From: an uncultured Roseburia sp.
GTDB taxonomy: Bacteria; Bacillota; Clostridia; Lachnospirales; Lachnospiraceae
Assembly (NCBI GenBank): GCA_947383215.1
Contig: CANDCP010000031.1
Coordinates: forward strand, 1-38,676
DNA length: 38,676 nucleotides
Reading direction: 5' to 3'
Notes under the pieces: model-generated
Seen by the model: only the letters and a program-made list of their open reading frames with translations
The model's database searches: none
What the model was told of the DNA's origin: nothing
Part shown: piece after piece, positions 5,238 through 32,933 of the stretch
Layout of the letters: the number at the start of each line of letters is the position of its first letter
Numbering within the stretch: position 1 is the stretch's first letter
Made by a program: the position numbers and the translations under genes

Positions 5238-5317
5238 AATCGCATGTACTCCTTTTCAAGCTCCGCACGTCGAAACGTGTGCGACGCCTCTAGTAACTTA
5301 TAAAACCATCCGCGGGA

Positions 5318-6388: not shown

Positions 6389-6405
6389 TTCTACACCTCG
6401 TCCAA

Positions 6406-7740: not shown

Positions 7741-7744
7741 TATC

Positions 7745-9276: not shown

Positions 9277-9298
9277 ATCTGTCCCGCTTTCCTTTTTT

Positions 9299-10207: not shown

Positions 10208-10264
10208 TTCTTTTCACCCTCAGTCTCACGCCCTCTGCCTGATACAGGGCTTTTCTTTTTGTTT

Positions 10265-11380: not shown

Positions 11381-11419
11381 TTTCCTCTCCATTCCATTCA
11401 AACACGCAGGCTCTCCGGG

Positions 11420-14259: not shown

Positions 14260-14261
14260 TT

Positions 14262-15158: not shown

Positions 15159-15212
15159 TCTTCCTCTTCCCATCATCCGGCTGCAAACAGGATCCTCTTT
15201 TCCGTCGGCGTC

Positions 15213-16526: not shown

Positions 16527-16527
16527 T

Positions 16528-17301: not shown

Positions 17302-17318
17302 ACCGACACCCTCTCCCT

Positions 17319-18230: not shown

Positions 18231-18251
18231 ACGTCATCCTCTCCTTTTTTC

Positions 18252-19238
18252 TCACATCCCGCCGAGCAGCGCCCGGATCTCATCCACGCCAAGCCATTCC
18301 GAATTATTACCGGAATTATATTCAAACCCTTCTTCCACTTTCTTTCCGCCCGGAATCAGTTTCTCTTCGCCCCACCAGTTATAATGCGGATAGATAATGT
18401 AATGTTTTTTATATTCGTACGTTGTCGCGGAATCCTCTCTTGTCACCATCACTTCGTGAAGCTTTTCTCCCTCGCGAATCCCGACCTCCGGCATCTCGCA
18501 TCCCGGCAGCATTGCCTGCGCCAGGTCCGTAATCTGAAAAGACGGAATTTTGGAAATAAATGTCTCTCCGCCTCTCGCCTCTTCCAGCGCTTTAATGACC
18601 AGCTCTACCCCCTGCTCCAGGCTGATCCAGAACCTCGTCATGCGGTAATCCGTAATCGGCAGCTCTTTTCCGCCGTTTTCGATGATCTGTCTGAAAAACG
18701 GAATCACGGAACCTCTGCTTCCCGCCACATTTCCATAGCGAACAACCGCAAAGCGGACATCCTTCGCCCCCGAATACGCGTTCGCCGCAATAAAAAGCTT
18801 GTCCGATACCAGCTTTGTCCCACCGTACAGATTGATCGGGTTGACCGACTTATCGGTAGACAACGCGACGACTCTCTTTACGCCCGGCGTATCCAAGACG
18901 GCGTTTACTACGTTGATCGCGCCGTCTATATTCGTCCTTACCGCCTCGATCGGATTATATTCGCAAGCCGGAACCTGTTTTAACGCCGCCGCATGAATCA
19001 CATAATCCACGCCGTCTAAAGCGCGGAGCAGCCGCTCTTTATCGCGGACGTCTCCAATAAAAAAACGCATAATGTCTTCCTGCCGTTTAAATTTATTTGC
19101 CATGTGAAACTGCTTAAACTCATCCCTGGAATAAATAATGATTTTCTTTGGCCGATAATGCCTTAAGACATATTCCGTAAAGTGGTTCCCAAAGGAACCC
19201 GTTCCTCCCGTAATCAGTACTGTTTTTCCGTTCAGCAT
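18252..19238 (-). CDS. pseB: UDP-N-acetylglucosamine 4,6-dehydratase (inverting), PseB
   Basis: 328 residues, close to PseB of Helicobacter and Campylobacter along its length. It converts UDP-GlcNAc to UDP-4-keto-6-deoxy-AltNAc, the first step to pseudaminic acid. Shared motifs are LITGGTGSFGNHF, IIYSRDEFKQFHMA, FFIGDVRDKERL, HAAALKQVPACEYNP, STDKSVNPINLYGGTKL, RYGNVAGSRGSVIPFF, PITDYRMTRFWISLEQG and the C-terminal GEKLHEVMV. It is the first gene of the nonulosonic-like module in transcription order. Confidence 0.95.
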   Translation of the reverse strand: MLNGKTVLITGGTGSFGNHFTEYVLRHYRPKKIIIYSRDEFKQFHMANKFKRQEDIMRFFIGDVRDKERLLRALDGVDYVIHAAALKQVPACEYNPIEAVRTNIDGAINVVNAVLDTPGVKRVVALSTDKSVNPINLYGGTKLVSDKLFIAANAYSGAKDVRFAVVRYGNVAGSRGSVIPFFRQIIENGGKELPITDYRMTRFWISLEQGVELVIKALEEARGGETFISKIPSFQITDLAQAMLPGCEMPEVGIREGEKLHEVMVTREDSATTYEYKKHYIIYPHYNWWGEEKLIPGGKKVEEGFEYNSGNNSEWLGVDEIRALLGGM

Positions 19239-19266
19239 AATACTTCCTCTCTGCCATAGAAATTGG

Positions 19267-20430
19267 CTATCCTTCCGATATTGTTTTTTTATAAAATTCC
19301 AGATAATTTTCTGCCATTTTCTCCATTGTGAAACGTTTTGCGTAATTTTTTATATATTCGCTGTCCCATTGCTTTTTATACCACTCATGGATTGCCTCCG
19401 CCATAGATGCATCGCTATGGGAACCTGCAAGACAAACTACCTTCGGATCATTTAAATCATCCGCACACTCAGAGTCGGCATACATAATGACCGGCAGACC
19501 GTAGGCAATCGCCTCTAATGCGGAAATACTCAACCCTTCCGCATAGCTGGGCATAATTAACGCATCTGCGATCGAATAATACCGCTTCATTTCCTCATTC
19601 TGCAATACGCCTGCGTACAACATACAATCCGTTAAATTCAGTTTTTCAATTTCATCTGTTATATTGTACGTAGATCGCACCGCCATTTTTCCGCAAAAAA
19701 TAACATAAACCTTTTCCCTCAGGCACGCGTCCTGCTGAAAAACCCGCAACAACTGAATTTGATTCTTTCTGGCGCCTATGGTTCCCGCACACAATAAAAT
19801 TTTTTTATTACAAATACCAAGCTCCTTTTTTAAATTGCTATTACGGTACTCGGCCGTAAAATCCGTACCGTTTCGTATAGGCACCAGTCGTTTTTCATCA
19901 TAATCCTTATAGTCTTCCAGGATTTTTCTTTTCATGCCGTTACTTACCGTAATAATTTTTATATCAGACAGCTCTAACAGCTTTTTTGAAACTCTGTGCA
20001 CACTTTCATTTTCGCCGTATTCTGCTCTTTTTCCCTCATATAAATGACACGTGATAACATAAGGGATCTTCATTTTAGCGCACACATTCTTGATAATTGA
20101 TTCTGCCAAATCCCCATAATCATGAAAATTAATGATATCAGGCTGAATTTTTTTTACAGCCTTTTCAAAGATTTCTGTCATATAAGCAATGTATCCTTGA
20201 TTATCGCCCTTCACATTTTTTTGAGTTATATCGTAATCTGTTTTTACGATTTTTATGTTTCCAATCAGAAGCTCCGGCTCAATCACCTGTCCCAAAAACA
20301 AATAGGATTCATGTTGTTTTCCTATGTAATTACACAAATTTCTTACGACCAATCCTCCTCCCGAATAATTTTCATTAAAAGGCTTTAGGTTTGAATCATA
20401 GATATACCATGCATACGATAAAACTCTCAT
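19267..20430 (-). CDS. GT4-family glycosyltransferase
   Basis: 387 residues, GT-B fold. The N-terminal half begins MRVLSYAWYIYD and holds SGGGLVVRNLCNYI and INFHDYGDLAES; the C-terminal donor domain has KKILLCAGTIGARKNQ and the ExxE-like DALIMPSYAEGLSISALEAIAYGLPVI split over the sugar-nucleotide site. GGAGG lies 6 nt upstream of the ATG. It is visibly more A/T-rich than the sugar-biosynthesis genes that follow, like its two upstream neighbours. Probably a retaining transferase acting on the lipid- or protein-linked glycan; the donor is unknown. Confidence 0.87.
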   Translation of the reverse strand: MRVLSYAWYIYDSNLKPFNENYSGGGLVVRNLCNYIGKQHESYLFLGQVIEPELLIGNIKIVKTDYDITQKNVKGDNQGYIAYMTEIFEKAVKKIQPDIINFHDYGDLAESIIKNVCAKMKIPYVITCHLYEGKRAEYGENESVHRVSKKLLELSDIKIITVSNGMKRKILEDYKDYDEKRLVPIRNGTDFTAEYRNSNLKKELGICNKKILLCAGTIGARKNQIQLLRVFQQDACLREKVYVIFCGKMAVRSTYNITDEIEKLNLTDCMLYAGVLQNEEMKRYYSIADALIMPSYAEGLSISALEAIAYGLPVIMYADSECADDLNDPKVVCLAGSHSDASMAEAIHEWYKKQWDSEYIKNYAKRFTMEKMAENYLEFYKKTISEG

Positions 20431-20463
20431 CCTCTTCCTCCAAAATACGATAAAAACAATCGC

Positions 20464-22377
20464 TTATCCCTTACAGAGCTCCTTAAACTCCCTGCTCTTA
20501 TATAAAATGTCGGGCCTCCAGGCATCCAATTCCTCAAACAAATTTTCCAGAACCGCATAAACAGATCGATGTTTTTCCTCACTCCAGCCCTCCATATACT
20601 CTTTATACATCCATATCCCGGCTCGTTTTCCGATTGCCAGTAATTCACATCTTGTAAAATTCAAATAATCCTTTTCAAAAAAAATATCGCTGGTATAAAA
20701 TTTTTTTGAATCATAGATCAAATAATGCATCGCATAAAATTGTTCCAGCCCCATCTCGTCATTTTTATCTTTTAAATCTTTTAAATGAAATATCAAATCA
20801 TCATACTCTTCTTTTGTTTTTGGATTCCAGTTAAAATCAAAATTTTCATGCGGATTTTTCCCTGCATTTATAACCTGAATCCCGATCACCGGATATTCAT
20901 GCCCTATTGTTCCACATACCGTTAACGCAAACTTTGCTCCCTCGTTCTTTAGCTGCACGGGTGAAACGTGATTCTCTATGAGTTTAATACGCGTATATTT
21001 TTTTAACAATTTATCTATGATAATAAAATCTCTTTTCGACGCGCACGGATGCATTTTCAAATACCACTCATACTCAGATGTTTTGTCCGACAGTTCCCCC
21101 AAATGGCATAGCCATGAGAAATAATTGTCATCAAAAATCTGCTCTCCGGAATGATAACAATCCTCCTCAAATATATGCGGACAAATGATGATCTTTATTT
21201 TGTCATTATCATTAAGAACCCTTTCCGCCTTAATCTCCTCACTAAATGAGAATTTATCTCTATCCATTAACGAAACTTCGTCAGAACATCCATTCACTCT
21301 CATTTCTATATGCCGTTTTGCCCATTCCAAAGCCACTTCTTTCTCATGTTCGGTAAGCTGATTCCACATTTTTTTATAATAATTGCAGTTTTCAGAATGG
21401 CAATAGTTAAATTTCATTTTCGATATCTTCCAGCCATCGACCGAATACGTCGGAATTTTATAACTGACCGCAATATCCCTAATATAACCGTCCCATGAAA
21501 CTCCGTCCCCCAGCAGCACCGCTTTTACACTGTTCGTCTCAAAATACGCTCTCCAGAAAACAATCGTAGCTACTGATTTTTTTAGAAACTCATACATTTT
21601 TATACTTCTAATATCAAAATCGGGAACCTGCGTTCTTAAAAAATCTCTTATTATAGTGGTGCCGAAATGTATTCCATATATTGTGATTTCTCTCCATTCA
21701 CTCCATGAATTTAAATTTTTCCAGAGATTATTTGTTATTTCCTCCACTTCTATCTGATTCACAAAAGATGGATCCACTAAATCTACCATATTTACTGCCT
21801 GATAAATCCTTTTAACTATCGGAGATGCGTTCGAAACATCTGCTCCAAATCTAAAATATCCATAAATTGACGCATTATATTTTTCTGCAAAATAATTCGC
21901 ACAATAACCGTATTTAATTGCGGCAAGATCGCATCGATTATCAAACGCTATAAGGACCTTATTTTCTCTGTCCAACAATTTATGAGACTTCCATATCTTT
22001 TGTAAAAATTCTATGTATTGTTCCACCACGTCATCGCTGTGAAAAAGTCTCCATTCATCCCAAACATAGAATTCCTCGCCGGCTGTATAGCCCAGACTCT
22101 CCAGCTGTTTTTCTATCTCTTTATAAAAACGTCCCGCTGCAATCAAAATTATATGGTTATCACTTTTTTGATATTGGTCAATACTGATAATTTCTTTATT
22201 TCTAAATTTATTCCCCGCACCAAAACGCTTATTGTCAATAAACGCATTAATGAAGCTGTCTATATTTACAGATTCACAGACCTGCTCCGCGTCTACACCG
22301 GTTCCAAATATGTACAGACGTTTTCCATTATGCAATAAGTTCATCAATTCATGATTCGCTATATATTGTTTGCTCAA
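20464..22377 (-). CDS. Capsule-type polysaccharide biosynthesis protein with N-terminal Rossmann-like module
   Basis: 637 residues, function not firmly recognised. The N-terminal ~110 residues start KRLYIFGTGVDAEQVCE and contain AFIDNKRFG and IILIAAGRFYKEI, the same small Rossmann-like module carried by three other proteins in the operon. The rest has a GT-B-like look, with IIICPHIFEEDCYHS, YLKMHPC, and LTVCGTIGHEYPVIGIQVINAG near the C-terminus, similar to capsule surface-carbohydrate proteins. A TTG start with GGTGG 6 nt upstream is used. Strongly A/T-rich. A transferase acting on a glycan or glycan-phosphate is the likely role. Confidence 0.6.
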   Translation of the reverse strand: MSKQYIANHELMNLLHNGKRLYIFGTGVDAEQVCESVNIDSFINAFIDNKRFGAGNKFRNKEIISIDQYQKSDNHIILIAAGRFYKEIEKQLESLGYTAGEEFYVWDEWRLFHSDDVVEQYIEFLQKIWKSHKLLDRENKVLIAFDNRCDLAAIKYGYCANYFAEKYNASIYGYFRFGADVSNASPIVKRIYQAVNMVDLVDPSFVNQIEVEEITNNLWKNLNSWSEWREITIYGIHFGTTIIRDFLRTQVPDFDIRSIKMYEFLKKSVATIVFWRAYFETNSVKAVLLGDGVSWDGYIRDIAVSYKIPTYSVDGWKISKMKFNYCHSENCNYYKKMWNQLTEHEKEVALEWAKRHIEMRVNGCSDEVSLMDRDKFSFSEEIKAERVLNDNDKIKIIICPHIFEEDCYHSGEQIFDDNYFSWLCHLGELSDKTSEYEWYLKMHPCASKRDFIIIDKLLKKYTRIKLIENHVSPVQLKNEGAKFALTVCGTIGHEYPVIGIQVINAGKNPHENFDFNWNPKTKEEYDDLIFHLKDLKDKNDEMGLEQFYAMHYLIYDSKKFYTSDIFFEKDYLNFTRCELLAIGKRAGIWMYKEYMEGWSEEKHRSVYAVLENLFEELDAWRPDILYKSREFKELCKG

Positions 22378-22394
22378 AAATATCCACCCGCCTA

Positions 22395-23609
22395 TTAAAG
22401 ATTACTTAACATCAAATCTACCACATTCTCACTTGCATGTCCGTCCTCGAAAATTCCGACTCTCTCAATAAACTCTGACGCCTTTTTTCGATAAAGCTCC
22501 TCATCAAAATCCGCAATATTTTTTATCAAATCAGCGCTATTTTGCGCAACTGAAAAGGGAATCTCATCCGGATCAAACATAAGCGTCCCTCTATCTGCTA
22601 TATAATCATCCAGATCATCCGCATAAATAAACCCCGGCTGTCCAGTGAGGAATCCTTCAAAAATCACCGTAGAATAATCTGTAATGACAGCATCGGTAGC
22701 CGCCATAATCTCTGCCATATCCGGTCTGAGGCTTACGTCGATCAGCCGGCCGCTTTTTTCTGATACCGGAAATTCCTTCATAAAATCAGACAGCTGCGGA
22801 TGCAGACGCAAAAAAACATACCATGTTCCATCAAATTTTTTTTCGAATGCGGCTATCAAACGATTAAAATCTAAATTCACCGTTTCTATACTTACGCTTC
22901 TATGTGTACTCTGGCTGCCGCCACGAAATGTAGGCGCATACAGACAAATTTTTGCGTCTGCGGGAATCCCATACTCTTTTCTCAATTGAATATGTTTTTT
23001 TTCAACACCGGAAAACAAGATGTCACACCGGGGCGATCCCGTCTCCCTGATTTCCCCATCATAAATCAAACCATCGCGCCACATATTCGTACACCATCGG
23101 CTTCCGGACAATGCATAATCTATCATATCCGAGTCCGATTTACTCACAAGATACGCAATTTTCGAAAACTTATCCCCTCTGTATTTTCCAATTGGTTTTA
23201 AGGAAATGCTTCCATGCCACGTCTGAAAGTATTTCGTGCCTCTCCTCTTTTTCGTTCCATAAAATGTTCTGGTATTTGCCACCCAACATTTAGCGGTAGA
23301 GAGATGATAAGCGCGCGACCACAACGTGTTTTTTACTTTCTTTATCTCAGCCGGAAATTCCTTCTTCAAATCTTCAACCAGCCAGACAATTTCAAAGTTC
23401 GTCTCTCCCAATCGATTTCTTCTTAAAATCTCCTCCGCCACATATCTGGGGCTGCACGCGTATCCGCCGCTCCCCTCGAATGTCCACATAACAATCTTTG
23501 TCTTTTTTATAGGAAAGACGCGACAGATATAATATGCCAGACTACGTCGAAACGCCTGAAATCTCCGCATACGTATATATTTTTCCTCTGAACTTCTATT
23601 TCTGCCCAT
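22395..23609 (-). CDS. CDP-glycerol glycerophosphotransferase family protein (TagB/TagF-like)
   Basis: 404 residues of the Glyphos_transf family, which transfer polyol-phosphate from CDP-polyols to wall or surface polymers. The hallmarks are FQTWHGSISLKPIG (catalytic His), RETGSPRCDIL, LYAPTFRGG, FLRLHPQL and AVITDYSTVIFEGFLTG. An N-terminal basic, amphipathic stretch (RRFQAFRRSLAYYICRVF) fits peripheral membrane binding as in TagF. A later ATG at 23570 is possible. With a TagD-like enzyme two genes upstream, it likely adds glycerol-phosphate or a similar group to the glycan. Confidence 0.88.
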   Translation of the reverse strand: MGRNRSSEEKYIRMRRFQAFRRSLAYYICRVFPIKKTKIVMWTFEGSGGYACSPRYVAEEILRRNRLGETNFEIVWLVEDLKKEFPAEIKKVKNTLWSRAYHLSTAKCWVANTRTFYGTKKRRGTKYFQTWHGSISLKPIGKYRGDKFSKIAYLVSKSDSDMIDYALSGSRWCTNMWRDGLIYDGEIRETGSPRCDILFSGVEKKHIQLRKEYGIPADAKICLYAPTFRGGSQSTHRSVSIETVNLDFNRLIAAFEKKFDGTWYVFLRLHPQLSDFMKEFPVSEKSGRLIDVSLRPDMAEIMAATDAVITDYSTVIFEGFLTGQPGFIYADDLDDYIADRGTLMFDPDEIPFSVAQNSADLIKNIADFDEELYRKKASEFIERVGIFEDGHASENVVDLMLSNL

Positions 23610-23615
23610 AACCTT

Positions 23616-24653
23616 TTATCCAATCAAATTTAAAAAACGCTCCAGACAATATACCAAAAGCTTTTGCTCTCCCGTTAATCCATTCGTACATCCCGCAAGC
23701 AGCTCGTCTCTTTTTGGTCCCTCCCATTCCTTCATCCAGTCTTCCGCCGGTCTGGACATGGGAAGTTTCTCCGGGATACGCAAAGACGGATATCTCATTT
23801 TAAATAATTCCCGAATCAAATATTTTGGTTCTCCGTTGCGTACCCGCTGCAGATCTAATGGCTCCGCCATTTTCAATTTTTCATATGGATCCACGAAATC
23901 GATCCCCGCACATCGAAACGCATTTGTAAGAGCTCCTGCAGCAGACGCAGCATACGGACCGGCAATAAACCGGATAAAATCAATTCCGTCCTCGCCTGTA
24001 CGGTATAAATCATATACAGACGACATGTCTACGGGATCCCTGACAACTTTTTTGGGATCTACAAAACTATATCGTTCTACCCATTCATCATATGTCCAGT
24101 CTCTCGATAAGAGTCGATCCATCCCGCCAAACTCCGTGTCTGCACAATCGCCATATACAATACAGGAGGCCCCATTCTGCTTTGCAAGTTTTGCCAGCTT
24201 GTATGCCTGCGGCTCATTCGGAATAATAGGCGACCCATCATGCAACATCAACTCATCCATAGTTGATGTATAATCATCCCAGGAAACGTCAACTACAATA
24301 TGCTCTAAATTATAGATTTCACAGTACTTCTTAGCCTGCTCTGTCTCATCTACCGCGCCGTTCCCAATGCAGCGCGCCGTATATGCCTTTGTTCCGGCAG
24401 GCATATAGGATGCCAGTATCGCCGAATCCATTCCGCCGCTGAGCAAAACTGCCGCATGCTTCAGATCAACGCCGGAAAGAATCCTTTTAATATTTTCATC
24501 GATTTCGCCGGCTGTTTTACACGGAATTTTATCCTCGTCATCGACAGACTCATGGTCACGGTGCATCATGCCCTCTTTAAAACATCTGTTTTTATCATAC
24601 ACGTATCGAAATGTAAGATATGAACTCATACAATAGTTTTTATCTACTATCAT
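23616..24653 (-). CDS. Stand-alone asparagine synthase-like ATP-pyrophosphatase
   Basis: About 345 residues. The PP-loop AVLLSGGMDSAILASYM and GDCADTEFGGMDRLL match the C-terminal synthetase domain of AsnB-type enzymes, but the N-terminal glutaminase domain is missing. The protein would adenylate a carboxylate and join it to an amine or ammonia from another source. In a glycan operon this may be amide formation on a uronic or nonulosonic acid, or acylation of an amino sugar. The start at 24653 has AAAGG about 10 nt upstream; a GTG at 24674 is an alternative. Substrate unknown. Confidence 0.75.
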   Translation of the reverse strand: MIVDKNYCMSSYLTFRYVYDKNRCFKEGMMHRDHESVDDEDKIPCKTAGEIDENIKRILSGVDLKHAAVLLSGGMDSAILASYMPAGTKAYTARCIGNGAVDETEQAKKYCEIYNLEHIVVDVSWDDYTSTMDELMLHDGSPIIPNEPQAYKLAKLAKQNGASCIVYGDCADTEFGGMDRLLSRDWTYDEWVERYSFVDPKKVVRDPVDMSSVYDLYRTGEDGIDFIRFIAGPYAASAAGALTNAFRCAGIDFVDPYEKLKMAEPLDLQRVRNGEPKYLIRELFKMRYPSLRIPEKLPMSRPAEDWMKEWEGPKRDELLAGCTNGLTGEQKLLVYCLERFLNLIG

Positions 24654-24678
24654 TTTCCTATTTCCTTTCTTCACTTTC

Positions 24679-25110
24679 TCACAGCCGCATTACACAATTA
24701 TCTTTCTCACCGCGAAGAATCGTCGACGATATATTTGGCGTATGCGGAAGATAAATTACTTTCACACCTTTCCCTAATCCTTCCAGATCTTTTTCCGTCT
24801 GAATCCATCTTTTATCGCCCTTCCAGTCGTCGCCAATAAATACAGCGTCAAAATGATACTTATGGCAAAGCTCAACTTTATCTAAAGTTGAAACAATTAT
24901 ACACATATCCACACTTTTTAAATTACGGACAATTTCCGCCCGCTCCAGCTCTCCTATAACAGGAGTCTTATTTTTATATTTCATTACAAGATCATCTGAA
25001 TTCACGCCGACAATCAACGTTTCACACTGCTCCTTTGCACGGTTTATTAATTTCAGATGTCCTATATGAAACATATCAAAAACTCCCTGTGTATACCCTA
25101 CCTTGTACAT
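24679..25110 (-). CDS. TagD-like cytidylyltransferase (glycerol-3-phosphate type)
   Basis: 143 residues, a small HxGH nucleotidyltransferase like TagD (about 129 residues), which makes CDP-glycerol. The motif GVFDMFHIGHLKLINRA and the C-terminal NISSTILRGE (ISSTxL signature) are both present; FIGDDWKGD fits. AGGAG lies 10 nt before ATG 25110; a TTG eight residues earlier abuts the upstream stop and is less likely. It should supply the CDP-polyol used by the TagF-like proteins in the operon. The polyol (glycerol or a relative) is inferred. Confidence 0.87.
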   Translation of the reverse strand: MYKVGYTQGVFDMFHIGHLKLINRAKEQCETLIVGVNSDDLVMKYKNKTPVIGELERAEIVRNLKSVDMCIIVSTLDKVELCHKYHFDAVFIGDDWKGDKRWIQTEKDLEGLGKGVKVIYLPHTPNISSTILRGEKDNCVMRL

Positions 25111-25134
25111 ACAAGTGCTTCTCCTATCTCTCAA

Positions 25135-25860
25135 TCACAAATATGCCTCCGGCTCATTCAGTATCACATCCGTAATTCCAAGCTTTTCTAATGCGTCCAG
25201 ATCCAGCCTGGTCCCCGTCGGCTTCTCGGGATATAAATGCCCCGAAAAATATGCGCGCACCGTAAGCCCTTCAAGCTCTTTCCTGGACAGATCCATTCCC
25301 CGCCAATACGGATGAAGCGCATCGGCGCCGCAGCCTCCGTTTCTTTTATACAGACAATCCGATACTTTTCCGTCTAAAATCCCAAGCTCAGAAGCAGGCG
25401 CCAGCTTTCTGAGCCTTTCCAGTGAAAACGCATAAAACGACGAATACATAACGGACTCCTGCAGGCCTTTCCTGCGCACGAGATCCACGATCGCTTCCTC
25501 CATCCCCTCATATGGGACGACGCTGTTTTTCAGCTCTATATTCAGCCTGAGATTTTCTTTTAGTCTTTCCTGCAGCAAATCAAATACCTCTTCCATTGTC
25601 GGTATCTGCTCCCACTTCCCATTTCCTGCATCTATTTTTAACCGTTTGAGCTCGGCTAGCGTGAATCCCCTCACTTCACCGATTCCATCCGTCGTCCGAT
25701 CTACCCGCTCGTCATGACATACAACCACATAACCGTCTTTTGTAAGCTGGATATCCAGCTCAATCCCGGCAAGTCCCTTTAACGCCGCCGCTTTTTCAAA
25801 TGCCGTGAGGGTATTCTCCGGATATCTCTGACTGCATCCCCTGTGTGCCCATATCTTCAT
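25135..25860 (-). CDS. Glycerophosphodiester phosphodiesterase (UgpQ/GDPD family)
   Basis: 241 residues, full GDPD TIM barrel. The catalytic region IWAHRGCSQRYPENTLTAFE, then IELDIQLTKDGYVVVCHDE, holds the metal and catalytic His/Glu/Asp residues. It hydrolyses glycerophosphodiesters to glycerol-phosphate and an alcohol. No signal peptide, so cytosolic. It overlaps the upstream fusion gene by ATGA. Placed between two cytidylyltransferases, it may release the glycerol-phosphate that is then activated with CTP, or edit polyol-phosphate groups. This linkage is inference. Confidence 0.9.
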   Translation of the reverse strand: MKIWAHRGCSQRYPENTLTAFEKAAALKGLAGIELDIQLTKDGYVVVCHDERVDRTTDGIGEVRGFTLAELKRLKIDAGNGKWEQIPTMEEVFDLLQERLKENLRLNIELKNSVVPYEGMEEAIVDLVRRKGLQESVMYSSFYAFSLERLRKLAPASELGILDGKVSDCLYKRNGGCGADALHPYWRGMDLSRKELEGLTVRAYFSGHLYPEKPTGTRLDLDALEKLGITDVILNEPEAYL

Positions 25861-27197
25861 ACGTTCCGGTTCTCCATCTCTAAAAATTGTTCCATCAGCT
25901 GCGCCATAACGACCGACTCGCTGCGTGTCAATTTAAATTCGCTGCTGCTGTTTCCGTTTATCATCGACAAGAAATCACTGATCTCATAGCGCAGCCCGTC
26001 ACCCAAAAAACGTTCCGTATATTTTTCTACCTCCAACGGATTTTCATAGTGAACTTCAAAATACGTTGTCTTCCACCACGGCGCTTCCGCGATAATATAT
26101 CCTTTCGTCCCGGCGATCAAAAGCCTTCCCTCTGATTTCACGCCTAACCCGCAGGTACCGGTTGAGATCCCGTTCGGATAATTCAGAGAAATCCTGGTAA
26201 AAAGGTCAATTCCGTTCTCCGCGCGTATCGCGTCAAACCGGACGTCCTTAAAGTTCTCTCCGAACAGTTTTAAAATCGGAAGCATGATATAACTGCCCAT
26301 CTCGGTGAAGCTGCCGCCATATACCGTATCCGTCAGCTCTCTGCGCTCTGGGTCTTCAATTTTCGTAAAGCAGGCCTCAACGTTTCGTATGCTTCCGATT
26401 ATACCGCTGCACGCGATCCCGATTAATTTATTGAATCCCGGACAATAGGCGGTCTTAATGCCCTCAAATAAAATCAGTCCTCTTTTTTTCGCTTCGCGAA
26501 ACACCTCCTCCGCCTGCGCCCGCACAAGCACCATCGGTTTTTCGCACAGAACATGCTTATTGTGCTGAAGGGCCGATTTGATATATGCATAATGCGTTTC
26601 ATGCGGGGACGCAATATAGACAATGTCGACTGCCGCGTAGAAATCTTCCAAATCCTCATACGCATCGATCTTCCATTTTTCCGCAAACTTTTTTGCGCTC
26701 TGTCTATGCGGATTATAAACGCCCTGCGTGCTTACGCCGCTGACAAGCTTTACCTCCGGAACAAACCGTTCCGCAATCCGCCCCGTCCCGATAATGCCGA
26801 TTCTCTGTATCCGGCTGTTTTTCTCTCTGAGCATCGTGCTTGAAATATTTTTCGTGCGCTCCAGATAGACAACCTCGCAGTAATCTTTCAAATAATCAAA
26901 CTCCCCCGTCCAATCCGAACCGACGGTAAAAATATCAATCCCATACTTTTTTACGTCGCTAAACTTCTGCCCCCGCGATTCCTCTATAATCACCTCGTCC
27001 GCAAATCCTGTCTTTCTGACATTTTCAATGCGCGTCATCAGCGGATCGACTACATTCAATTTTCCCCTTGTCTTGTCGTACGCCTCGGTTGTGACGCCGA
27101 CAATCAGATAATCTCCGAGCGCCTTTGCCCTTTGAAGCAGCCGGTAATGTCCTTCGTGAAAGAGGTCAAACGTCCCGTATGTAATTACCTTTTTCAT
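25857..27197 (-). CDS. Fusion of TagD-like cytidylyltransferase and Gfo/Idh/MocA oxidoreductase
   Basis: 446 residues with two complete enzymes. Residues 1-130: cytidylyltransferase with TYGTFDLFHEGHYRLLQRA, FTVGSDWTGEFDYL and NISSTMLRE. Residues 131-446: Gfo/Idh/MocA dehydrogenase with IGIIGTGRIAERFVP (NAD(P) site), YIASPHETHYAYIKSAL and HVLCEKPM (catalytic Lys). It overlaps genes on both sides by 4 bp (ATGA). A likely meaning is that a polyol-phosphate or keto-sugar is oxidised or reduced and then coupled to CMP. The pairing with GDPD and TagF-like genes points to an unusual CDP-polyol. Product unknown. Confidence 0.88.
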   Translation of the reverse strand: MKKVITYGTFDLFHEGHYRLLQRAKALGDYLIVGVTTEAYDKTRGKLNVVDPLMTRIENVRKTGFADEVIIEESRGQKFSDVKKYGIDIFTVGSDWTGEFDYLKDYCEVVYLERTKNISSTMLREKNSRIQRIGIIGTGRIAERFVPEVKLVSGVSTQGVYNPHRQSAKKFAEKWKIDAYEDLEDFYAAVDIVYIASPHETHYAYIKSALQHNKHVLCEKPMVLVRAQAEEVFREAKKRGLILFEGIKTAYCPGFNKLIGIACSGIIGSIRNVEACFTKIEDPERRELTDTVYGGSFTEMGSYIMLPILKLFGENFKDVRFDAIRAENGIDLFTRISLNYPNGISTGTCGLGVKSEGRLLIAGTKGYIIAEAPWWKTTYFEVHYENPLEVEKYTERFLGDGLRYEISDFLSMINGNSSSEFKLTRSESVVMAQLMEQFLEMENRNV

Positions 27198-29752
27198 AGA
27201 ACCTTCCCCCTCGCAAATTCATAGACCGCCCTCCCGCATGTTCCGTCCGTATTCGCGTTGATTTTTGCAAACGCGGCAATCTGCTTTTCCCGGTCGAAAC
27301 GCTTTCCGGTGATCTGCCCGTCCAAAAAATCTTTCAGCGAGTTAAACGCATTTTCATTCAGACAGTACTGCAGCCACTCGGACTCCATATCAAATCCCGG
27401 TTCACGCGCTTTTAACTCCTCATAGTCAAATCCCGTTTCGATTTCTCTGTATTCTTTTGTTTCGATGTCGATCTCATAAAGCTTCCGCTCCGGCGCATAC
27501 CAAATCCGCTTTTTCGCATCTCTACAATTGGGAAACAGCGTGATAAATCCGCCCATGCCGCTCGCTGTGAAATATCCGTTTTTCCCGCGGTTTGCAAACG
27601 GAATCGGCGGTTTCCACTCTTTCATTTCCCCTGTCTTTCGGTCAAGAGAGAGATACATATTTCCCCACGTCGGCGAGATCACAATCTTTTCGCTCCCGCC
27701 CTCCCCGGAAAATGCTATCGCGCCAAACGGCCGTTCCCGGCACTCTAAGTCATAAGGACCTCTTATCGACTGAAAACCGTCCGGCAGCGCGCCGTCGTAC
27801 TCTCTGACGCTTTCCGTGGCCGGATTCCAGCGCGTAACTGTCATCCCGTTTAACGGCAGAAGCCACAAATCTTCGCCGTCCCCAACAATTTCCTGCGTCC
27901 CAAGATTACATTTTGAATGGCTGCTTTGCTTCCTCGCCTCTAAAGTATCCATGTTAAGAAACAGAAATTCGTTGTCCGACGGAGAGGCGAAAACGAGCTC
28001 CTCTCCATACTGCCAGACTCCGCCCGAACGCCACTCTCCCCCGTCATATCTTACGTTAAACGGACAAACGCCGTCTACATAACGGATTTCCTCTGTTTCA
28101 ACGGTAACCCTGACAAGAAACGGATAGCGGAACGGAAGCAGGAAAAGATATTTCTCGTTATACCAATAGCCGCCGAACGCGCCGCTTTGGGTAGTCTTCT
28201 CGATAAACGGTATTTTTTTTATTTTTTTATCGCGGATGACCAAAAGATGCTGTGCGTTTCCGGGAAGCACAAAGATCTTATCCTGAAACTCCAACGCTTT
28301 TAAATAATATCTGCCCCCGGAATATTCACATCCCAAATCCATATAGAAACTGTAATGGTAATCATTTTTTTCCGAAAACCACAGCTGATTATTTCTTGCG
28401 ATAAAATAGCGGTCATTTCCACGCGTATCAAACGTCAGATTCAACTTTTCGCCGCGCCAGTCGTCCTTATCCGGAAGCGTATGAATTCTGTCATTTAAAA
28501 TAAACAGCGGTTTTCCCGCAACGCCAAACAGCGACGTCACGCTTGAGCCGGCATCGCCGATATAAGCGTCCGCATTTGCAATCGTACTCTCTATTTCCGG
28601 CGTGTCGTCATAAATACCCAGATCTTCGTCTATAAACTCATTTTTCAGAGCGTCGTACTCCGACTTATATGAGGCGCGCATAGAATCGAAGGTAGATTCG
28701 AGCAGCGGATGCGGACGCCACAAAAGACAAGCGTCCTCCCTTTCACGAAACAGATCGAACACGTACCTCATTTTTTTGAGAAACGCTCCCGTATCCCAGA
28801 GCGCTTCGCCGATGGTCGTATTGTAGAAATATACGCGCCTGTCTCTCATTTTCACCGCCCACTCTTTTGGCGGCGCGGGCGGATTTTGACATTTGCGGAT
28901 TACACTGTCAAATTTCGGCGAACCCATAGCGAGAAACTTCTCGCCCGGTATGCGCGCGTCAAAGTATTTGCGGTATTTTTCCGACTGTATCACTATGTAA
29001 TCCGCATAGAGATATGCGGGACAAATCGCCTGTCCGTCGCTCATCCCGCCCGAAGTGGCGTAATAGGGAATATATATCAGACATGCCGTATATTTTTTTA
29101 AGTTATCCGAGTAAAAAAAGGGATGCACGCTTGTAACATAGTTTGCGGCATCATAAGGATTATGAATAAATATTACGTCCGGCCGATGTTTTCCGAAGTC
29201 AAACTCATCATATCTGGTAATCGGTACATAAGACGGGTACAATTCCGCCTCATAATGCATTTTGCGAAAACTCCCGTCAGGATTTTTATCATAATACGGA
29301 ATCGGAATTACATAGGCGTCGCAATTCGAATCCTCATCCGCCGCCCGCCATACGCTTTCAAGACTATCCCACATAGACGATTTATAAGGCAGAAACACAG
29401 CCTCTATTTTCACTTTAATATCATGGCGCACCCTGTTTTCTATTCGTATCAACAGGCTCCGCAGACTCTTATACGCAGCGTTTGCGTTTATGTTTTCGTT
29501 ATCTGTCAGACGTCGATGTATCTGATAGAGCAGCTCACAGTATTCTTCAATCATAGGAATGGCCGCAAAGTCCGCGCCCTCCGATTCCTCAATCATATTT
29601 CCAATCTCAATCGCGCCCTGCTGGCAGTCCTCCAAAATTGCAAGCGCCGCTCTTTTATTCTCCTTTTTCGCAAGAAGCCGTCTCAGCCCTTCATGCGCCT
29701 GACCGAGCGTCTTTAAAAAACTCTCTGCCTGCTGTTTCTGCTCTTTTCTCAT
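27194..29752 (-). CDS. TagF-like glycerophosphotransferase domain fused to a predicted beta-propeller
   Basis: 852 residues. An N-terminal helical region (1-105) is followed by a Glyphos_transf-like domain (about 110-450): VIPIPYYDKN, VIFIHNPYDAANYVTSVHPF, FLAMGSPKFDSVI, LLWRPHPLLEST and YIGDAGSSVTSLFGVAGKPL, the counterparts of TagF's HxS, GSP, RxHP and DxSS motifs. The rest (about 460-780) has repeated blade-like segments with Tyr/Trp-rich strands (KYLFLLPFRYPF, EDLWLLPLNGMTV, EMKEWKPPIPF), suggesting a beta-propeller, perhaps for glycan binding. It is the first enzyme gene of the operon. GGGAG lies 7 nt upstream of the ATG. Confidence 0.75.
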   Translation of the reverse strand: MRKEQKQQAESFLKTLGQAHEGLRRLLAKKENKRAALAILEDCQQGAIEIGNMIEESEGADFAAIPMIEEYCELLYQIHRRLTDNENINANAAYKSLRSLLIRIENRVRHDIKVKIEAVFLPYKSSMWDSLESVWRAADEDSNCDAYVIPIPYYDKNPDGSFRKMHYEAELYPSYVPITRYDEFDFGKHRPDVIFIHNPYDAANYVTSVHPFFYSDNLKKYTACLIYIPYYATSGGMSDGQAICPAYLYADYIVIQSEKYRKYFDARIPGEKFLAMGSPKFDSVIRKCQNPPAPPKEWAVKMRDRRVYFYNTTIGEALWDTGAFLKKMRYVFDLFREREDACLLWRPHPLLESTFDSMRASYKSEYDALKNEFIDEDLGIYDDTPEIESTIANADAYIGDAGSSVTSLFGVAGKPLFILNDRIHTLPDKDDWRGEKLNLTFDTRGNDRYFIARNNQLWFSEKNDYHYSFYMDLGCEYSGGRYYLKALEFQDKIFVLPGNAQHLLVIRDKKIKKIPFIEKTTQSGAFGGYWYNEKYLFLLPFRYPFLVRVTVETEEIRYVDGVCPFNVRYDGGEWRSGGVWQYGEELVFASPSDNEFLFLNMDTLEARKQSSHSKCNLGTQEIVGDGEDLWLLPLNGMTVTRWNPATESVREYDGALPDGFQSIRGPYDLECRERPFGAIAFSGEGGSEKIVISPTWGNMYLSLDRKTGEMKEWKPPIPFANRGKNGYFTASGMGGFITLFPNCRDAKKRIWYAPERKLYEIDIETKEYREIETGFDYEELKAREPGFDMESEWLQYCLNENAFNSLKDFLDGQITGKRFDREKQIAAFAKINANTDGTCGRAVYEFARGKVL

Positions 29753-29807
29753 GATGTTCTCCCATGAACTGTTTTCTTTTTTGTTCTACTCCTTTTTATT
29801 ATCATAA

Positions 29808-30011
29808 GGATTATCGAGGCGTTTTCGCCTGTATACTTTTTTAAGAAGCATACTTCGCTCCGCGAAAGCCGCGGTCCTGGCATACCCGAAAGCGATTCCG
29901 CTTAGCTAATGCCGACTTTTTGCTTTTATATGTCAATATATCTTCCTGCGATCCGGTTCCCGGTAAAATCATCTGTCGATGATTCATTCTCAGGTCAATA
30001 TATTCTAACCG
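29808..30011 (-). ncRNA. Candidate guide/omega-like structured RNA 3' of the tnpB-like gene
   Basis: The 259-bp gap between the tnpB-like stop and the next gene has no ORF but holds a run of hairpins on the minus strand: 7-bp stem at 29967-29984, CCGG/CCGG at 29953-29963, an outer GGCAT/ATGCC stem (29879-29913) enclosing AAGCG/CGCTT (29890-29903), CCGCG/CGCGG (29860-29874), GAAG/CTTC (29845-29856) and AGGCG/CGCCT (29817-29830). This is where TnpB and TldR proteins encode their omega or guide RNA. The last hairpin is followed by A/T-rich DNA that would be the guide. The exact ends and the guide boundary are guesses. Confidence 0.45.
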
Positions 30012-31343
30012 TTAACAATTATATTTTTTCTGTATATTTCTCGCCGAGTTAAGCGCCGCCGTGCTTTCCATCCCGCAGCTCTCACAGACAAATAAAAATC
30101 CCTTCCGCTTCCCCGTCTCCCCGCAGGAGGAACAGATACTGCCTGTCCCGTTTGCATCGATCTCCAGCAGTTCAATGGAATGGACCCGACATTTATATGC
30201 CAGTCGTTCTCTGATATAGTTCTGGAAGCTTCGCGACAGCTTACGGTTAACGGATTTGGAGTATTTTGCCTTATTTTTTGTAATCGGCTTCGTAACAATG
30301 ATTTTTCCCGGCTTTTCTTCCGCCAACATCCGGTTGATTTCGGAATTGATAAAAACGACGGTCTTTCGTCTCTCTCTTTCTTTCTGCCTGTCATACTTAA
30401 GCCTGCCAAGATTATTTGTCTCAATCTTATCCGCCTTTTGGATGTTCCCGTCTTTTACACTCTGATCATATGCGTTATACATTTTGCGGCGTTCGCGATT
30501 TTTTGCGGCAAGCCTTTCCGTCTCGGGGCTCACAATATCCTCCAGCGCTTTCCCGTAAACCTTCCCGTCTGACAACGTGAACATATCTTTGTAGCCTATG
30601 TGGAGGTAAACCGTATTGGTATAATCGTCGTGCTTCTTTATCTTTGCCTCCACAGGCGCCGCAAGTAAAACAAAATTCTCTTTTATCTGTATCCGTATCT
30701 GCCTGTCAAATGTCCGTCCGTCTTTTAACGGAATCGCGATCCTCTTTCTCGGCGTCCTGCATACGATGCGGATGGCACCGTCTTCATACGAATAACCGTT
30801 CGGCGAAATCCGAAACGAATCCGCGTTGTCTGTCTTCGGCTGCACCAGATACTTCCTCGTCAACCTGCACAAAAGATTATTCAGATGTTTTACGTCGAGC
30901 GTGAAATCTTTTACATTTTGCGGAAGCTCATACTCCTGATGCGTCAGAACAGACGCATAGACATGATTTAACTTTAATACGGTGCGAAGGTACATTTTAT
31001 CGCCCGCGCCAAGGCGCTCGTTCGCGGTAACGCGTTCCCCGATCTTTTTTTTCACAATTCCCCATTCGGCCTTGATATCCGCGACCGCATCTGCGATTGC
31101 AAGCTCATAATATACCGCCGGTAAATTTAACTGCTCCCTCAATCCACAGTAACGCATTTCATTCAAAATACTGTATACGGGCGTCAGCTTGTCCAGACTT
31201 CGTATTCCGGAATATCGCTGATAAACGTAATTCTTTACCTTGCAGTAATCCAATGCGATCCCCTTTAAAATTTCCATGGTATCTTCCGCCAATGGCTTGC
31301 TGTACTGCCAGACCGTTTTGGTTATGACGCCGTCTTTTGACAT
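30012..31343 (-). CDS. Nuclease-dead TnpB-family protein (TldR-like), predicted RNA-guided DNA binder
   Basis: 443 residues, IS605/IS607 OrfB (TnpB) family. The C-terminal zinc finger is intact (C404, C407, C420, C423: CSSCGE and CESCG), and the RuvC fold landmarks are recognisable. All three catalytic acids are gone: RuvC-I reads YLHIGYKDMFTLSDG with His248 for Asp; RuvC-II reads KIIVTKPITK with Thr351 for Glu; RuvC-III reads TAALNSARNI with Ala430 for Asp. The frame is otherwise uninterrupted with a good start (GGGG 7 nt upstream), so this looks like a selected loss of nuclease activity, as in TldR repressors exapted from TnpB. No TnpA is present. It is the first gene reading into the glycan operon and lies just inside an invertible promoter. 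Confidence 0.88.
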   Translation of the reverse strand: MSKDGVITKTVWQYSKPLAEDTMEILKGIALDYCKVKNYVYQRYSGIRSLDKLTPVYSILNEMRYCGLREQLNLPAVYYELAIADAVADIKAEWGIVKKKIGERVTANERLGAGDKMYLRTVLKLNHVYASVLTHQEYELPQNVKDFTLDVKHLNNLLCRLTRKYLVQPKTDNADSFRISPNGYSYEDGAIRIVCRTPRKRIAIPLKDGRTFDRQIRIQIKENFVLLAAPVEAKIKKHDDYTNTVYLHIGYKDMFTLSDGKVYGKALEDIVSPETERLAAKNRERRKMYNAYDQSVKDGNIQKADKIETNNLGRLKYDRQKERERRKTVVFINSEINRMLAEEKPGKIIVTKPITKNKAKYSKSVNRKLSRSFQNYIRERLAYKCRVHSIELLEIDANGTGSICSSCGETGKRKGFLFVCESCGMESTAALNSARNIQKKYNC

Positions 31344-31383
31344 CCTTTTCCCCTTCCAAAATACGCGTATGCAGATATGGAAA

Positions 31384-31408
31384 TTCGTAGATTATTGAAA
31401 TCTGCGAA
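31384..31408 (-). repeat. Left recombination-like inverted-repeat site (IR-L)
   Basis: 10-bp arms TTCGTAGATT and AATCTGCGAA (one mismatch) around a 5-bp centre ATTGA; arms extend to 13 bp with AAA/TTT. The reverse complement matches the right site over 28 bp with one difference, including the centre read backwards (TCAAT). The asymmetric centre sets orientation, so the two sites are inverted with respect to each other. It lies 38 bp after the integrase stop and 41 bp before the tnpB-like start. Confidence 0.75.
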
Positions 31409-31445
31409 TTTTGCCGTCAGTCTCTGGACGTACAGATTTTTGAAG

Positions 31446-32567
31446 TTAATATTGACCCATAATTCGACCATAAACAGTGGACAGGGCGTTCATATGGCTG
31501 CGCTTTGTCTCGAATGTCGGATGTACATAGCGGTTCAGCGTAATCTTCACATCCGAATGCCCAAGGATCTCGCTAAGGCTCTTGATATCTGCGCCGCTGC
31601 TGATACAATTTGTCGCGAATGTATGGCGGAGCGCGTGAAAGTTCTTCTTTTCCACGCCCGCATCCCGCAGATAGCTTTGAAATTTGTACTGATATGTGCG
31701 CGGCTCCATCGGTCGGTTTTTCCCTACCACATATTTTCGGTTTTCGACGCGGTAAATTACCAATAACTTTACAAGCTCATCCGACAACGGGATTTTTCTT
31801 TTGGAGGATACGCTTTTGGGCTCGCCCTCTAAAAGCGTCGTCCTGGTGCGCTTTCCCTCTACGGCGATTCGCTGCACGGTTGTATTGACATGAAGCAATT
31901 TTTCTTCAAAATTAATATCCGCCCATTTTAAAGAACAAATTTCCCCCAAACGCAATCCGGTAGAAATACAGACGACAATCCCCAATTTGCAAAGATCCAT
32001 TTCATCATAGAGACAGTGCAGAAGGCGCGCCTGCTCCGACATACTCATAACTTCCACCGGTTTAGGCGCCGTTTTATATCTGCAGTGTGAATAAGTAAAC
32101 GGGTGACAGTGATACTGTGAAACTGCGTAAGACAAAATTTGATTTAATACACAGGAAATACTTTTTTGCAGGCTGTCAGATAACATTTCCCGGCTCCCGC
32201 CTGTGAATACGCGGCTTAAATTTTTGCTGTCTAACTCCGAGACAAACATCTCTCCCACTTTATGCTGAATATGTTTTTCATAAACGCTGCGGTATTTTAT
32301 GTAAGTAGCATGCTTTTTTTCGCTGCAGACATGACAAAGCCATTCTTCCGCCACCGTTTTAAAGCGAACGTTTGTATTCCTTCCGGCCCTCGCTGCATTT
32401 GTTTCCGAAGCAAGCTTTGCCACAAACAATTTTTGTTTTACTTCGCCGTATGTCTTTGCATATACGGAGTGCAAAATACTTTTTCCTGTCTCGATTTCTT
32501 TTGTGTAATATCGCCCCTCCCAGCGTCCGTCCTTTCTTTTCCTTATGTTTTCTCCGCGTCTTGGCAT
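31446..32567 (-). CDS. Tyrosine recombinase / integrase
   Basis: 373 residues, phage-integrase family with all catalytic residues: Arg206 (STGLRLGE), Lys251 (EPKSVSSKRKIP), His311 and Arg314 (HALRHTFAT), His337 (LGHSD) and Tyr347 (NRYVH). The N-terminus has an AP2/Arm-type DNA-binding stretch (GRWEGRYYTKEIETGK) and a SAM-like core-binding domain (about 70-165). GAGAGG lies 8 nt before the ATG. It is intact and sits between two inverted recombination-like sites, so its likely job is to invert the segment containing itself. No excisionase or phage genes are nearby. Confidence 0.93.
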   Translation of the reverse strand: MPRRGENIRKRKDGRWEGRYYTKEIETGKSILHSVYAKTYGEVKQKLFVAKLASETNAARAGRNTNVRFKTVAEEWLCHVCSEKKHATYIKYRSVYEKHIQHKVGEMFVSELDSKNLSRVFTGGSREMLSDSLQKSISCVLNQILSYAVSQYHCHPFTYSHCRYKTAPKPVEVMSMSEQARLLHCLYDEMDLCKLGIVVCISTGLRLGEICSLKWADINFEEKLLHVNTTVQRIAVEGKRTRTTLLEGEPKSVSSKRKIPLSDELVKLLVIYRVENRKYVVGKNRPMEPRTYQYKFQSYLRDAGVEKKNFHALRHTFATNCISSGADIKSLSEILGHSDVKITLNRYVHPTFETKRSHMNALSTVYGRIMGQY

Positions 32568-32689
32568 TCTTCATTCCTCTCTTTCTGACCACTTTTTTGA
32601 CCCCTGATAGCGGAAAGTCAACTTTTCGTGTATGATATTTGCTTTCAATCGCCTTAAAACGCAACGTCAAAGCTGCATTTTTTTGGTAG

Positions 32690-32718
32690 TTGACAAATAC
32701 TGTTGTCGAAAGTATAAT
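32690..32718 (+). promoter_or_regulatory. Perfect sigma-A consensus promoter, facing away from the operon
   Basis: TTGACA at 32690-32695 and TATAAT at 32713-32718 with a 17-bp spacer, an exact match to the consensus in both hexamers and spacing. It reads rightward; the predicted start is near 32725. No plus-strand gene follows for 4.9 kb, and a terminator-like hairpin lies about 60 bp downstream. This only makes sense if the segment can flip, placing it in front of the tnpB-like gene and the glycan operon. Confidence 0.8.
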
Positions 32719-32782
32719 AATCCATATGGAGAAAATAGCCATAAAATAAAAGAATTCGTTGGTTTTTGTGTACCATATTTTT

Positions 32783-32807
32783 TTCGCAGATTTCAATAAT
32801 CTGCGAA
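32783..32807 (+). repeat. Right recombination-like inverted-repeat site (IR-R)
   Basis: Perfect 10-bp arms TTCGCAGATT and AATCTGCGAA around a 5-bp centre TCAAT. It matches the left site (reverse complemented) across 28 bp with one difference. Arm length and short asymmetric centre fit a tyrosine recombinase core site. It lies about 60 bp downstream of the consensus promoter start. Confidence 0.75.
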
Positions 32808-32812
32808 TTTTT
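32783..32812 (+). terminator. Possible intrinsic terminator formed by the right site
   Basis: Read rightward, the perfect 10-bp stem of IR-R is followed at once by TTTTT, giving a terminator-like hairpin plus U-tract that would stop transcripts from the 32690 promoter in the present orientation. The left site read leftward has a mismatched stem and TTTCC, so it would not terminate as well. The stem has only 4 G/C pairs, so strength is uncertain. Confidence 0.4.
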
Positions 32813-32859
32813 GTATTGAATACGTAAAATCAAAAAAGAACAACTTTCTTTTGCATTCT

Positions 32860-32913: not shown

Positions 32914-32933
32914 AGCGTCTATGCGTCCGTCTC

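What the first reader, a model, noticed from the sequence alone, without database searches (positions are those of the whole stretch)
30012..31343. TnpB homologue with all three RuvC catalytic acids replaced, heading a glycan operon
The protein keeps the TnpB fold landmarks and a complete four-cysteine zinc finger, but RuvC-I Asp is His248, RuvC-II Glu is Thr351 and RuvC-III Asp is Ala430. The frame is intact. Nuclease-dead TnpB relatives (TldRs) are known RNA-guided transcription repressors, some controlling flagellin genes. I know of none described at the head of a polysaccharide/nonulosonate operon under an invertible promoter. Recognising the substitutions is direct; the regulatory role is inference.
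Basis: partly seen in the sequence, partly recalled or inferred. Interest (0 to 1): 0.92.

Follow-up and report, generated by a model that had tools for sequence, protein, structure and literature searches.

The report
Dead TnpB repressor for glycan switching
A bacterium's flip-switch sugar-coat operon begins with a disarmed relative of a gene-cutting enzyme and a small RNA, whose tail exactly matches a gene of the same bacterium's other, similar sugar-coat gene cluster, so it probably silences one coat when the other is made.

Summary
ORF 30012-31343 (minus strand, 443 aa) has a TnpB fold and a complete zinc finger, with RuvC D/E/D replaced by H248/T351/A430. It is not decay: 84 of 91 aligned family rows are dead, the other 7 form an intact sister clade, and dead pairs show dN/dS of 0.07-0.27. 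In 48 of 80 unique dead loci an inverted-repeat pair ends just before the gene. The window's inverton holds a tyrosine recombinase and a perfect sigma-70 promoter pointing away from the gene (OFF as assembled).

A covarying RNA, without an Rfam match, lies just downstream of nearly all dead members and of no intact one tested. In the window its unpaired 3' tail (29796-29812, 17 nt) matches exactly, with two flanking bases, the only other transferase paralogue found in the genome. The last 14 nt occur exactly nowhere else. RNAs of the window's branch match another locus's gene better than their own (11 of 11, window included). In the larger branch, guide matching is weak apart from a few genomes.

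Best reading: a TldR-like RNA-guided repressor making alternative surface glycans switch. No expression or binding was tested. New variant of a known kind.

The parts
30012..31343 (-). Nuclease-dead TnpB homologue (TldR-like), 443 aa; RuvC acids replaced by H248, T351, A430; zinc finger C404/C407/C420/C423
29796..29994 (-). Conserved structured RNA downstream of the gene (guide-RNA scaffold plus guide); the covariance-model core hit is 29800-29893
   Evidence: fold shown on relatives
29796..29812 (-). Proposed guide: unpaired 17-nt 3' tail; matches the paralogous transferase gene at G000:C18:22090-22106 17 of 17 (19 nt with two flanking bases)
31446..32567 (-). Tyrosine recombinase (Phage_integrase family), 373 aa, inside the invertible cassette
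31381..31408 (+). Inverted-repeat arm next to the tnpB-like start, 28 nt
   Evidence: pair I1, 96% complementary, 1374 nt between arms
32783..32810 (-). Distal inverted-repeat arm, 28 nt
32690..32718 (+). Perfect sigma-70 promoter match (12 of 12) inside the cassette, pointing away from the tnpB-like gene; after inversion it would end about 130 bp before that gene
27194..29752 (-). First biosynthetic gene of the operon, 852-aa putative transferase (no Pfam or NCBIfam hit); paralogue of the proposed target
29150..29163 (-). 14-nt partial match of the RNA tail inside the operon's own transferase gene (HNPYD codons)
2842..27197 (-). Rest of the glycan operon as far as scanned: cytidylyltransferase/oxidoreductase, GDPD, Glyphos_transf, NeuB, cytidylyltransferase, aminotransferases, glycosyltransferases

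Best explanation
It is an RNA-guided transcription repressor of the TldR type. Shown by sequence: a nuclease-dead TnpB, a conserved RNA right behind it whose unpaired tail starts after a closing helix, an exact match of that tail to the transferase gene of a parallel glycan gene cluster elsewhere in the genome, and a recombinase-carrying invertible cassette with a promoter in front. Inferred: when the cassette flips so that its promoter faces the operon, the protein, the RNA and an alternative glycan are made together. The RNA-protein complex then binds the other cluster's transferase gene about 590 nt into its coding sequence. The guide has the sense of the mRNA, so it must pair with the template DNA strand, and the bound complex blocks RNA polymerase. 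The cell thus exchanges one surface glycan for another instead of adding one.
For: Dead family under purifying selection. Inverted repeat just upstream in 50 of 85 loci against 13 of 1620 random positions and 3 of 131 other gene starts; 48 of 80 unique dead loci. The GGAGCGAA core of the RNA lies within 900 nt of the stop in 74 of 78 dead loci, 0 of 7 intact, 15 of 1251 control stretches. RNA covariation on 31 relatives: 17 of 25 pairs with compensatory changes, score 0.444 against 0.169 shuffled, reached in 0 of 500 shuffles. A model built without the window finds the window's RNA, E 2.2e-6. In the own genome the 19-nt tail pattern hits itself, the C18 paralogue (1 mismatch) and one 3-mismatch site; its reversed control hits nothing. 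The 14-nt guide core is exact only at the RNA and C18. Best-matching site of 35 tails: HNPYD codons for 9 of 13 window-type and Y-I-P-Y codons for 11 of 22 others; shuffled tails hit either motif 5 of 210 times. Another locus's gene beats the own gene in 11 of 11 window-type RNAs (own best 0, expected 4.4, P 0.002). Strong cases in other genomes: L072 (17 nt) and L064 (16 nt).
Against: No expression, binding or repression data. The own operon's gene matches the first 12 of the 17 guide bases with the same kind of flank, and PMC13418256 reports a 6-nt seed, so self-targeting is not excluded. In the larger 'main' branch the match is weak: genome-label permutation P 0.96 (window-type P 0.027), own-versus-other P 0.20, a tail pattern no more frequent than its reversed control in 14 genomes, and of 11 further RNAs tested only L064 scored above 12. 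Shuffled tails reached up to 15. Tails share descent, so counts of RNAs are not independent events. The helix that sets the guide boundary hardly varies (4 of 5 pairs never vary). D253 near RuvC-I is conserved in most of the window's branch and E426 lies four residues before the RuvC-III position; a shifted active site cannot be fully ruled out, though no acid lies on the RuvC-II strand.
Confidence: 0.72

Rival explanations
1. The RNA and protein act in cis on their own operon, as an antitermination or leader device like UpxY or LoaP/EAR (the latter recalled), and the tail match to the paralogue is incidental.
For: The RNA sits between the tnpB-like gene and the next genes in most members; the position parallels Bacteroides upxY (passages of PMC12632263); main-branch tails show no genome-specific match.
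Against: The window's exact 17-19 nt match to the single paralogue found, matches in L072 and L064, and better match to other loci than to own in 11 of 11 window-type RNAs. The protein has a TnpB fold.
Confidence: 0.12
2. The complex is RNA-guided but mainly autoregulates its own operon through the partial site in its own transferase gene (feedback).
For: 14-nt match in the own gene; the HNPYD motif is present in most of the transferase genes listed.
Against: Own gene matches worse than another locus in 28 of 34 RNAs with both, 5 the other way, 1 tie, noting that 'other' takes the best of several genes.
Confidence: 0.1
3. The dead TnpB assists or controls DNA inversion (a partner of the recombinase), and the RNA serves that.
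For: Frequent link to inverted repeats and a recombinase within 2.6 kb upstream in 28 of 91 rows.
Against: It heads operons with two different inverted-repeat classes, and the class with arms 96-140 bp apart had no recombinase of this type within 2.6 kb upstream; the window's guide matches a coding sequence.
Confidence: 0.05
4. A decaying or selfish insertion-sequence TnpB.
For: Fold and ancestry; an intact sister clade exists; some copies are broken (G196 and G283:C75, L143).
Against: 84 of 91 rows dead yet only one of the 91 rows was flagged as broken; dN/dS 0.07-0.27 in dead pairs; single copy in the own genome; recurring operon position.
Confidence: 0.02

Closest known systems
TldR, TnpB-like nuclease-dead repressors (fliC-associated, prophage); passages of PMC13418256 seen, the original 2024 Nature paper not held
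   Same: Dead RuvC, guide RNA next to the gene, linked gene is an isoform of the targeted gene, replacement logic
   Different: Proposed target here is a glycan transferase gene in its coding sequence, not the fliC promoter region; operon under a tyrosine-recombinase cassette, not reported as prophage-borne here
csrA-associated TldRs of Oscillibacter/Flavonifractor (PMC13418256, section 11 read)
   Same: Target sites inside coding sequences of paralogues, several cross-targeting loci, invertible DNA upstream
   Different: Flagellin targets, csrA partner and hin invertase there; glycan target, no csrA seen and a self-contained tyrosine recombinase here
Bacteroides UpxY/UpxZ (passages of PMC12632263)
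   Same: First genes after an invertible promoter of a surface polysaccharide operon; cross-locus inhibition
   Different: Protein antiterminator and its inhibitor (NusG kinship recalled); no RNA guide
IS200/IS605 and IS607 TnpB nucleases; intact sister clade here
   Same: Fold, zinc finger, RNA behind the gene
   Different: Catalytic acids gone; the sister RNA differs and is not found by the model
dCas12f-type RNA-guided regulators (PDB 9n9c; function recalled)
   Same: Dead Cas12f/TnpB-like fold with guide RNA
   Different: CRISPR-derived as recalled; kinship was not tested here

Membership tests
TldR (TnpB-like nuclease-dead repressor) | TnpB fold | tested here: met
TldR (TnpB-like nuclease-dead repressor) | RuvC catalytic acids lost in a conserved family | tested here: met
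   84 of 91 rows; purifying selection
TldR (TnpB-like nuclease-dead repressor) | Structured guide RNA encoded next to the gene | tested here: met
   sequence level only, no transcript seen
TldR (TnpB-like nuclease-dead repressor) | Guide matches a host gene next to a target-adjacent motif | tested here: inconclusive
   Guide match met for the window and inconclusive for the main branch; the flank ends in YAT in 12 of 14 pairs listed, but codon usage confounds this and no motif was measured
TldR (TnpB-like nuclease-dead repressor) | Linked to a gene that replaces the target's function | tested here: met
   three shared genes at 51, 82 and 82% identity, no match among the following genes; function inferred
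TldR (TnpB-like nuclease-dead repressor) | Guide-dependent DNA binding and repression | not testable with these tools
   needs RIP-seq, ChIP-seq, reporter
csrA-associated TldR | csrA within 3 kb | tested here: inconclusive
   No CsrA among the window ORFs scanned with Pfam; ORFs under 80 aa were not scanned
Active IS605/IS607 TnpB | D/E/D active site | tested here: not met
UpxY/UpxZ | NusG-type fold of UpxY (recalled) | tested here: not met
   TnpB/Cas12 fold instead
Type V CRISPR effector | Adjacent CRISPR array | tested here: not met
   no regularly spaced direct-repeat array in window 29500-33000; the rest was not scanned

The most novel reading that the evidence does not exclude
A natural CRISPRi-like switch for surface glycans in Lachnospiraceae: phase-variable accessory glycan operons each carry their own dead TnpB and guide RNA, the guide being a short run of codons of a conserved motif (HNPYD or Y-I/V-P-Y) in the transferase gene of rival operons, so that inversion-driven expression of one glycan silences the others. 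Because the larger branch and the window's branch differ in which residues replaced the active site and in guide, and the intact clade groups with the window's branch, this may have arisen twice.
Probability: 0.5. Interest if true: 0.93.

Novelty: new variant of a known kind. Interest (0 to 1): 0.88.

Why it matters
It would extend RNA-guided transcription control from flagellin to surface polysaccharides, join it to DNA inversion in one heritable switch, and give a guide-level rule for how these bacteria choose which coat to show. The window's guide and target are exact enough to test in E. coli. The family also offers dozens of compact natural candidates for RNA-guided repressors.

Tried and rejected
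Guide after the conserved tail: I first took the variable sequence behind the conserved RNA end as guide; a few 12-nt matches in the own loci, nothing convincing. The fold then showed that the conserved end lies outside the last helix, so the conserved end itself is the better guide candidate. In L049 the variable sequence is the start of an inserted transposase-like gene region; L045 and L053 share that start.

Main-branch targets: pattern searches in 12 and 14 genomes gave no clear excess beyond RNA copies. L090 looked by eye like YIPYY codons, but its genome's genes did not bear it out. Main-branch tails on Y-I-P-Y codons score mostly near the shuffled mean of 9.1, so the shared location may be one event.

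Rfam: nothing in the window's RNA region up to E 1; one hit far below its gathering score lies inside the tnpB-like gene. Plasmids and phages: 29 and 6 records, all under 60% identity. Viral contigs: 2 relatives, one with the contig length of L062. Intact-sister RNA as recognisable parent: not found by the model; similarity is by eye only. Tree: dead branches may have arisen twice, but the intact stem is long and the tool warns of long branches. Promoters: in the 33 shorter invertons the best match averages 9.7 of 12 against 8.8 in shuffles, so promoter evidence there is modest. Literature: PMC11702177 and PMC10691335 are not held, so an earlier census could already list this clade.

Rows dropped before counts: G026, G024, L104 as duplicates and truncated G030; five rows (G030, G026, G024, L104, L121). 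One search kept 80 of 223 relatives, so family counts rest on those 80 plus 2 viral contigs, the window and 8 loci from sampled genomes. Only genomes whose handles I chose were tested for targets.

Full report
What was checked. The ORF at 30012-31343 is intact on the minus strand and gives 443 aa. Pfam finds only the Cas12f1-like TNB domain at its C-terminus. AlphaFold2 with 51 family rows gives mean pLDDT 90, and Foldseek ranks TnpB, Cas12f and Fanzor complexes first, 65 chains at E up to 0.001. The three RuvC columns hold D, E and D in 7 of 91 rows each, one Clostridiaceae clade (L121 has the contig length of L062, so probably six distinct contigs); the other 84 rows never have D at column 248 or E at 351, and none has D at 430.

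It is a family, not a wreck. Of 299 sampled genomes of the same family, own included, 12 had a match at E up to 1e-5; three of these matched only other TnpB types, which leaves 9. In a class-wide sample 4 of 391 matched at E up to 1e-20. A scan of genome contigs found 223 relatives, of which the best 80 were kept, by title mostly Lachnospiraceae. Dead pairs with dS under 1.5 show dN/dS of 0.07 to 0.27. The own genome has one copy.

The switch in front. A 28-nt inverted repeat, 96% complementary, flanks the tyrosine recombinase gene, its near arm 37 bp from the start codon. A perfect TTGACA-17-TATAAT lies inside, pointing away from the gene. Of 53 invertons examined, 14 carry such a perfect promoter; 12 point away and 2 point toward the gene, ending 121 and 128 bp before it (G025, L091). 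Flipping the window's cassette would place its promoter about 130 bp before the gene, so the assembly shows the OFF state; this is inference. A recombinase lies within 2.6 kb upstream in 28 of 91 rows, in 5 of them on the opposite strand. Inverted repeats end within 350 bp of the start in 50 of 85 loci, none of the 7 intact; random positions of the same loci score 13 of 1620 and other gene starts after a gap of 150 bp or more 3 of 131. After removing duplicates 48 of 80 dead loci carry one, 74 of the 80 having at least 1 kb upstream to look at. A second inverton class has arms 96-140 bp apart with a different core.

The RNA behind. Downstream of the dead genes lies a gap, mostly of 200-700 nt, before the next ORF; in 40 of the 83 rows with such an ORF it belongs to the transferase cluster. 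In the gap lies a conserved RNA. Its GGAGCGAA core is found within 900 nt of the stop in 74 of 78 dead loci, 0 of 7 intact, 15 of 1251 control stretches; the covariance model also finds it in three of the four that lack the exact core (L116, L122, L031), not in L099. On 31 sequences the consensus fold has 25 pairs, 17 with compensatory changes, 97.1% of cells paired, and no shuffle of 500 reaches its scores. Its closing helix pairs an upstream stretch with the CCAAT that ends the scaffold, leaving an unpaired conserved tail; four of the five pairs of that helix never vary, so it rests more on complementarity than on covariation. The model built from those 31, none of the window's branch, finds the RNA in the window (E 3.8e-5 over 1.6 Mb; 2.2e-6 over 94.5 kb), with 69 hits in all among 91 sources, 31 of them by construction. 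Ten window-type loci (L044-L053) were not reached by that model at E up to 1, but carry the RNA by alignment.

The guide and its target. In the own genome the transferase family has two members at E up to 1e-10: the operon's own gene and one at C18. The RNA tail matches the C18 gene over 19 nt exactly, the own gene over 14. Its 17 unpaired bases match 17 of 17 there, and the last 14 occur exactly at no third place in 2.86 Mb. The C18 cluster follows cobalamin genes. In the 2.5 kb before its transferase gene only a 15-nt inverted repeat was found, ending about 830 bp before it, and the 18-kb stretch holds no copy of the RNA. It shares three genes with the window operon at 51, 82 and 82% identity, then goes on with LicD, an aminotransferase/nucleotidyltransferase and an MptE-like protein. 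That the two make related but different products is inference from gene content.

Other genomes. For 35 RNAs and 66 transferase genes of 25 genomes the best site was HNPYD codons in 9 of 13 window-type tails and Y-I-P-Y codons in 11 of 22 others; shuffled tails 5 of 210 on either. Shuffled scores had mean 9.1, 99th percentile 12 and maximum 15. Above 12 were WIN 19, L072 17, L043 and L048 15, L041 and L096 14, L050 and L051 13. Of 11 further RNAs only L064 exceeded 12, with 16. Of the 46 in all, 34 had both an own and another gene: other better 28, own better 5, tie 1. Correcting for the larger number of other genes, own best is 0 of 11 against 4.4 expected in the window's branch (P 0.002) and 6 of 23 against 8.4 in the main branch (P 0.20); relatedness is not corrected for. 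Permuting genome labels gives P 0.027 for the window's branch and 0.96 for the main one. The claim is therefore strong for the window, good for its branch, and open for the main branch. In 12 of the 14 pairs listed the target flank ends in YAT; the other two (WIN on its own gene, L066) the script placed at another site. Codon usage confounds this.

Mechanism. The guide has the sequence of the coding strand, so it cannot pair with the target's mRNA and must pair with the template strand of DNA. A bound dead complex about 590 nt into the gene would act as a roadblock (inference). PMC13418256 reports csrA-TldRs that bind inside fliC coding sequences, hin genes and inversions upstream of them, and guides as short as 6 nt (section 11 read; passages). 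The nearest functional parallel for the position is UpxY/UpxZ (passages of PMC12632263).

Novelty. Searches: TnpB with invertible promoter, 2 papers (passages of both seen); TldR with TnpB and nuclease-dead, 2 (one seen in listing only); TnpB with phase variation and capsular polysaccharide, 1, listing only; TnpB with exaptation and polysaccharide, 0; tyrosine recombinase with invertible, Lachnospiraceae and polysaccharide, 0; TldR with glycosyltransferase, 0; TnpB with RNA-guided repression terms, 28, of which 25 listed and only PMC13418256 opened; TldR with guide RNA, 1. None of what I saw describes a glycan-directed TldR. The library lacks the two main papers, so this is not proof. I call it a new variant of a known kind.

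Noticed in passing
L011, L018 (L033, L034), L012 (L035:2908-4095): A second, distant TnpB-like type also lacking the RuvC acids by alignment; L035 has a recombinase beside it and a 24-nt inverted repeat, arms 323 nt apart, just upstream of the gene.
   Followed up: partly
L029:9088-12758: A dead TnpB of the family directly follows a 719-aa flagellin gene, with a perfect 24-nt inverted repeat upstream of the flagellin, so the family may reach flagellin too.
   Followed up: no
L049:2940-3650, also L045, L053: In L049 an inserted transposase-like stretch sits directly behind the guide and the RNA end is repeated on its far side; L045 and L053 share the start of the stretch.
   Followed up: partly
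L143, around position 1500: The RNA tail joined to a truncated tnpB N-terminal part, an apparent internal deletion.
   Followed up: no
L058, L059, L061, L062, L065, L067: Intact sister TnpBs with a conserved downstream RNA that ends abruptly at one base in all six, a clear guide boundary.
   Followed up: partly
window 33855-33868: A one-mismatch copy of the 14-nt guide core about 30 bp before the AraC-type regulator start, without the shared flank.
   Followed up: partly
L077, L105, L106, L111, L118 behind the RNA: A recurring short element follows the RNA end after a few variable bases in several loci.
   Followed up: no
L122 (IMG/VR contig): A dead member with its inverted repeat and RNA lies on a contig classed as viral.
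   Followed up: no
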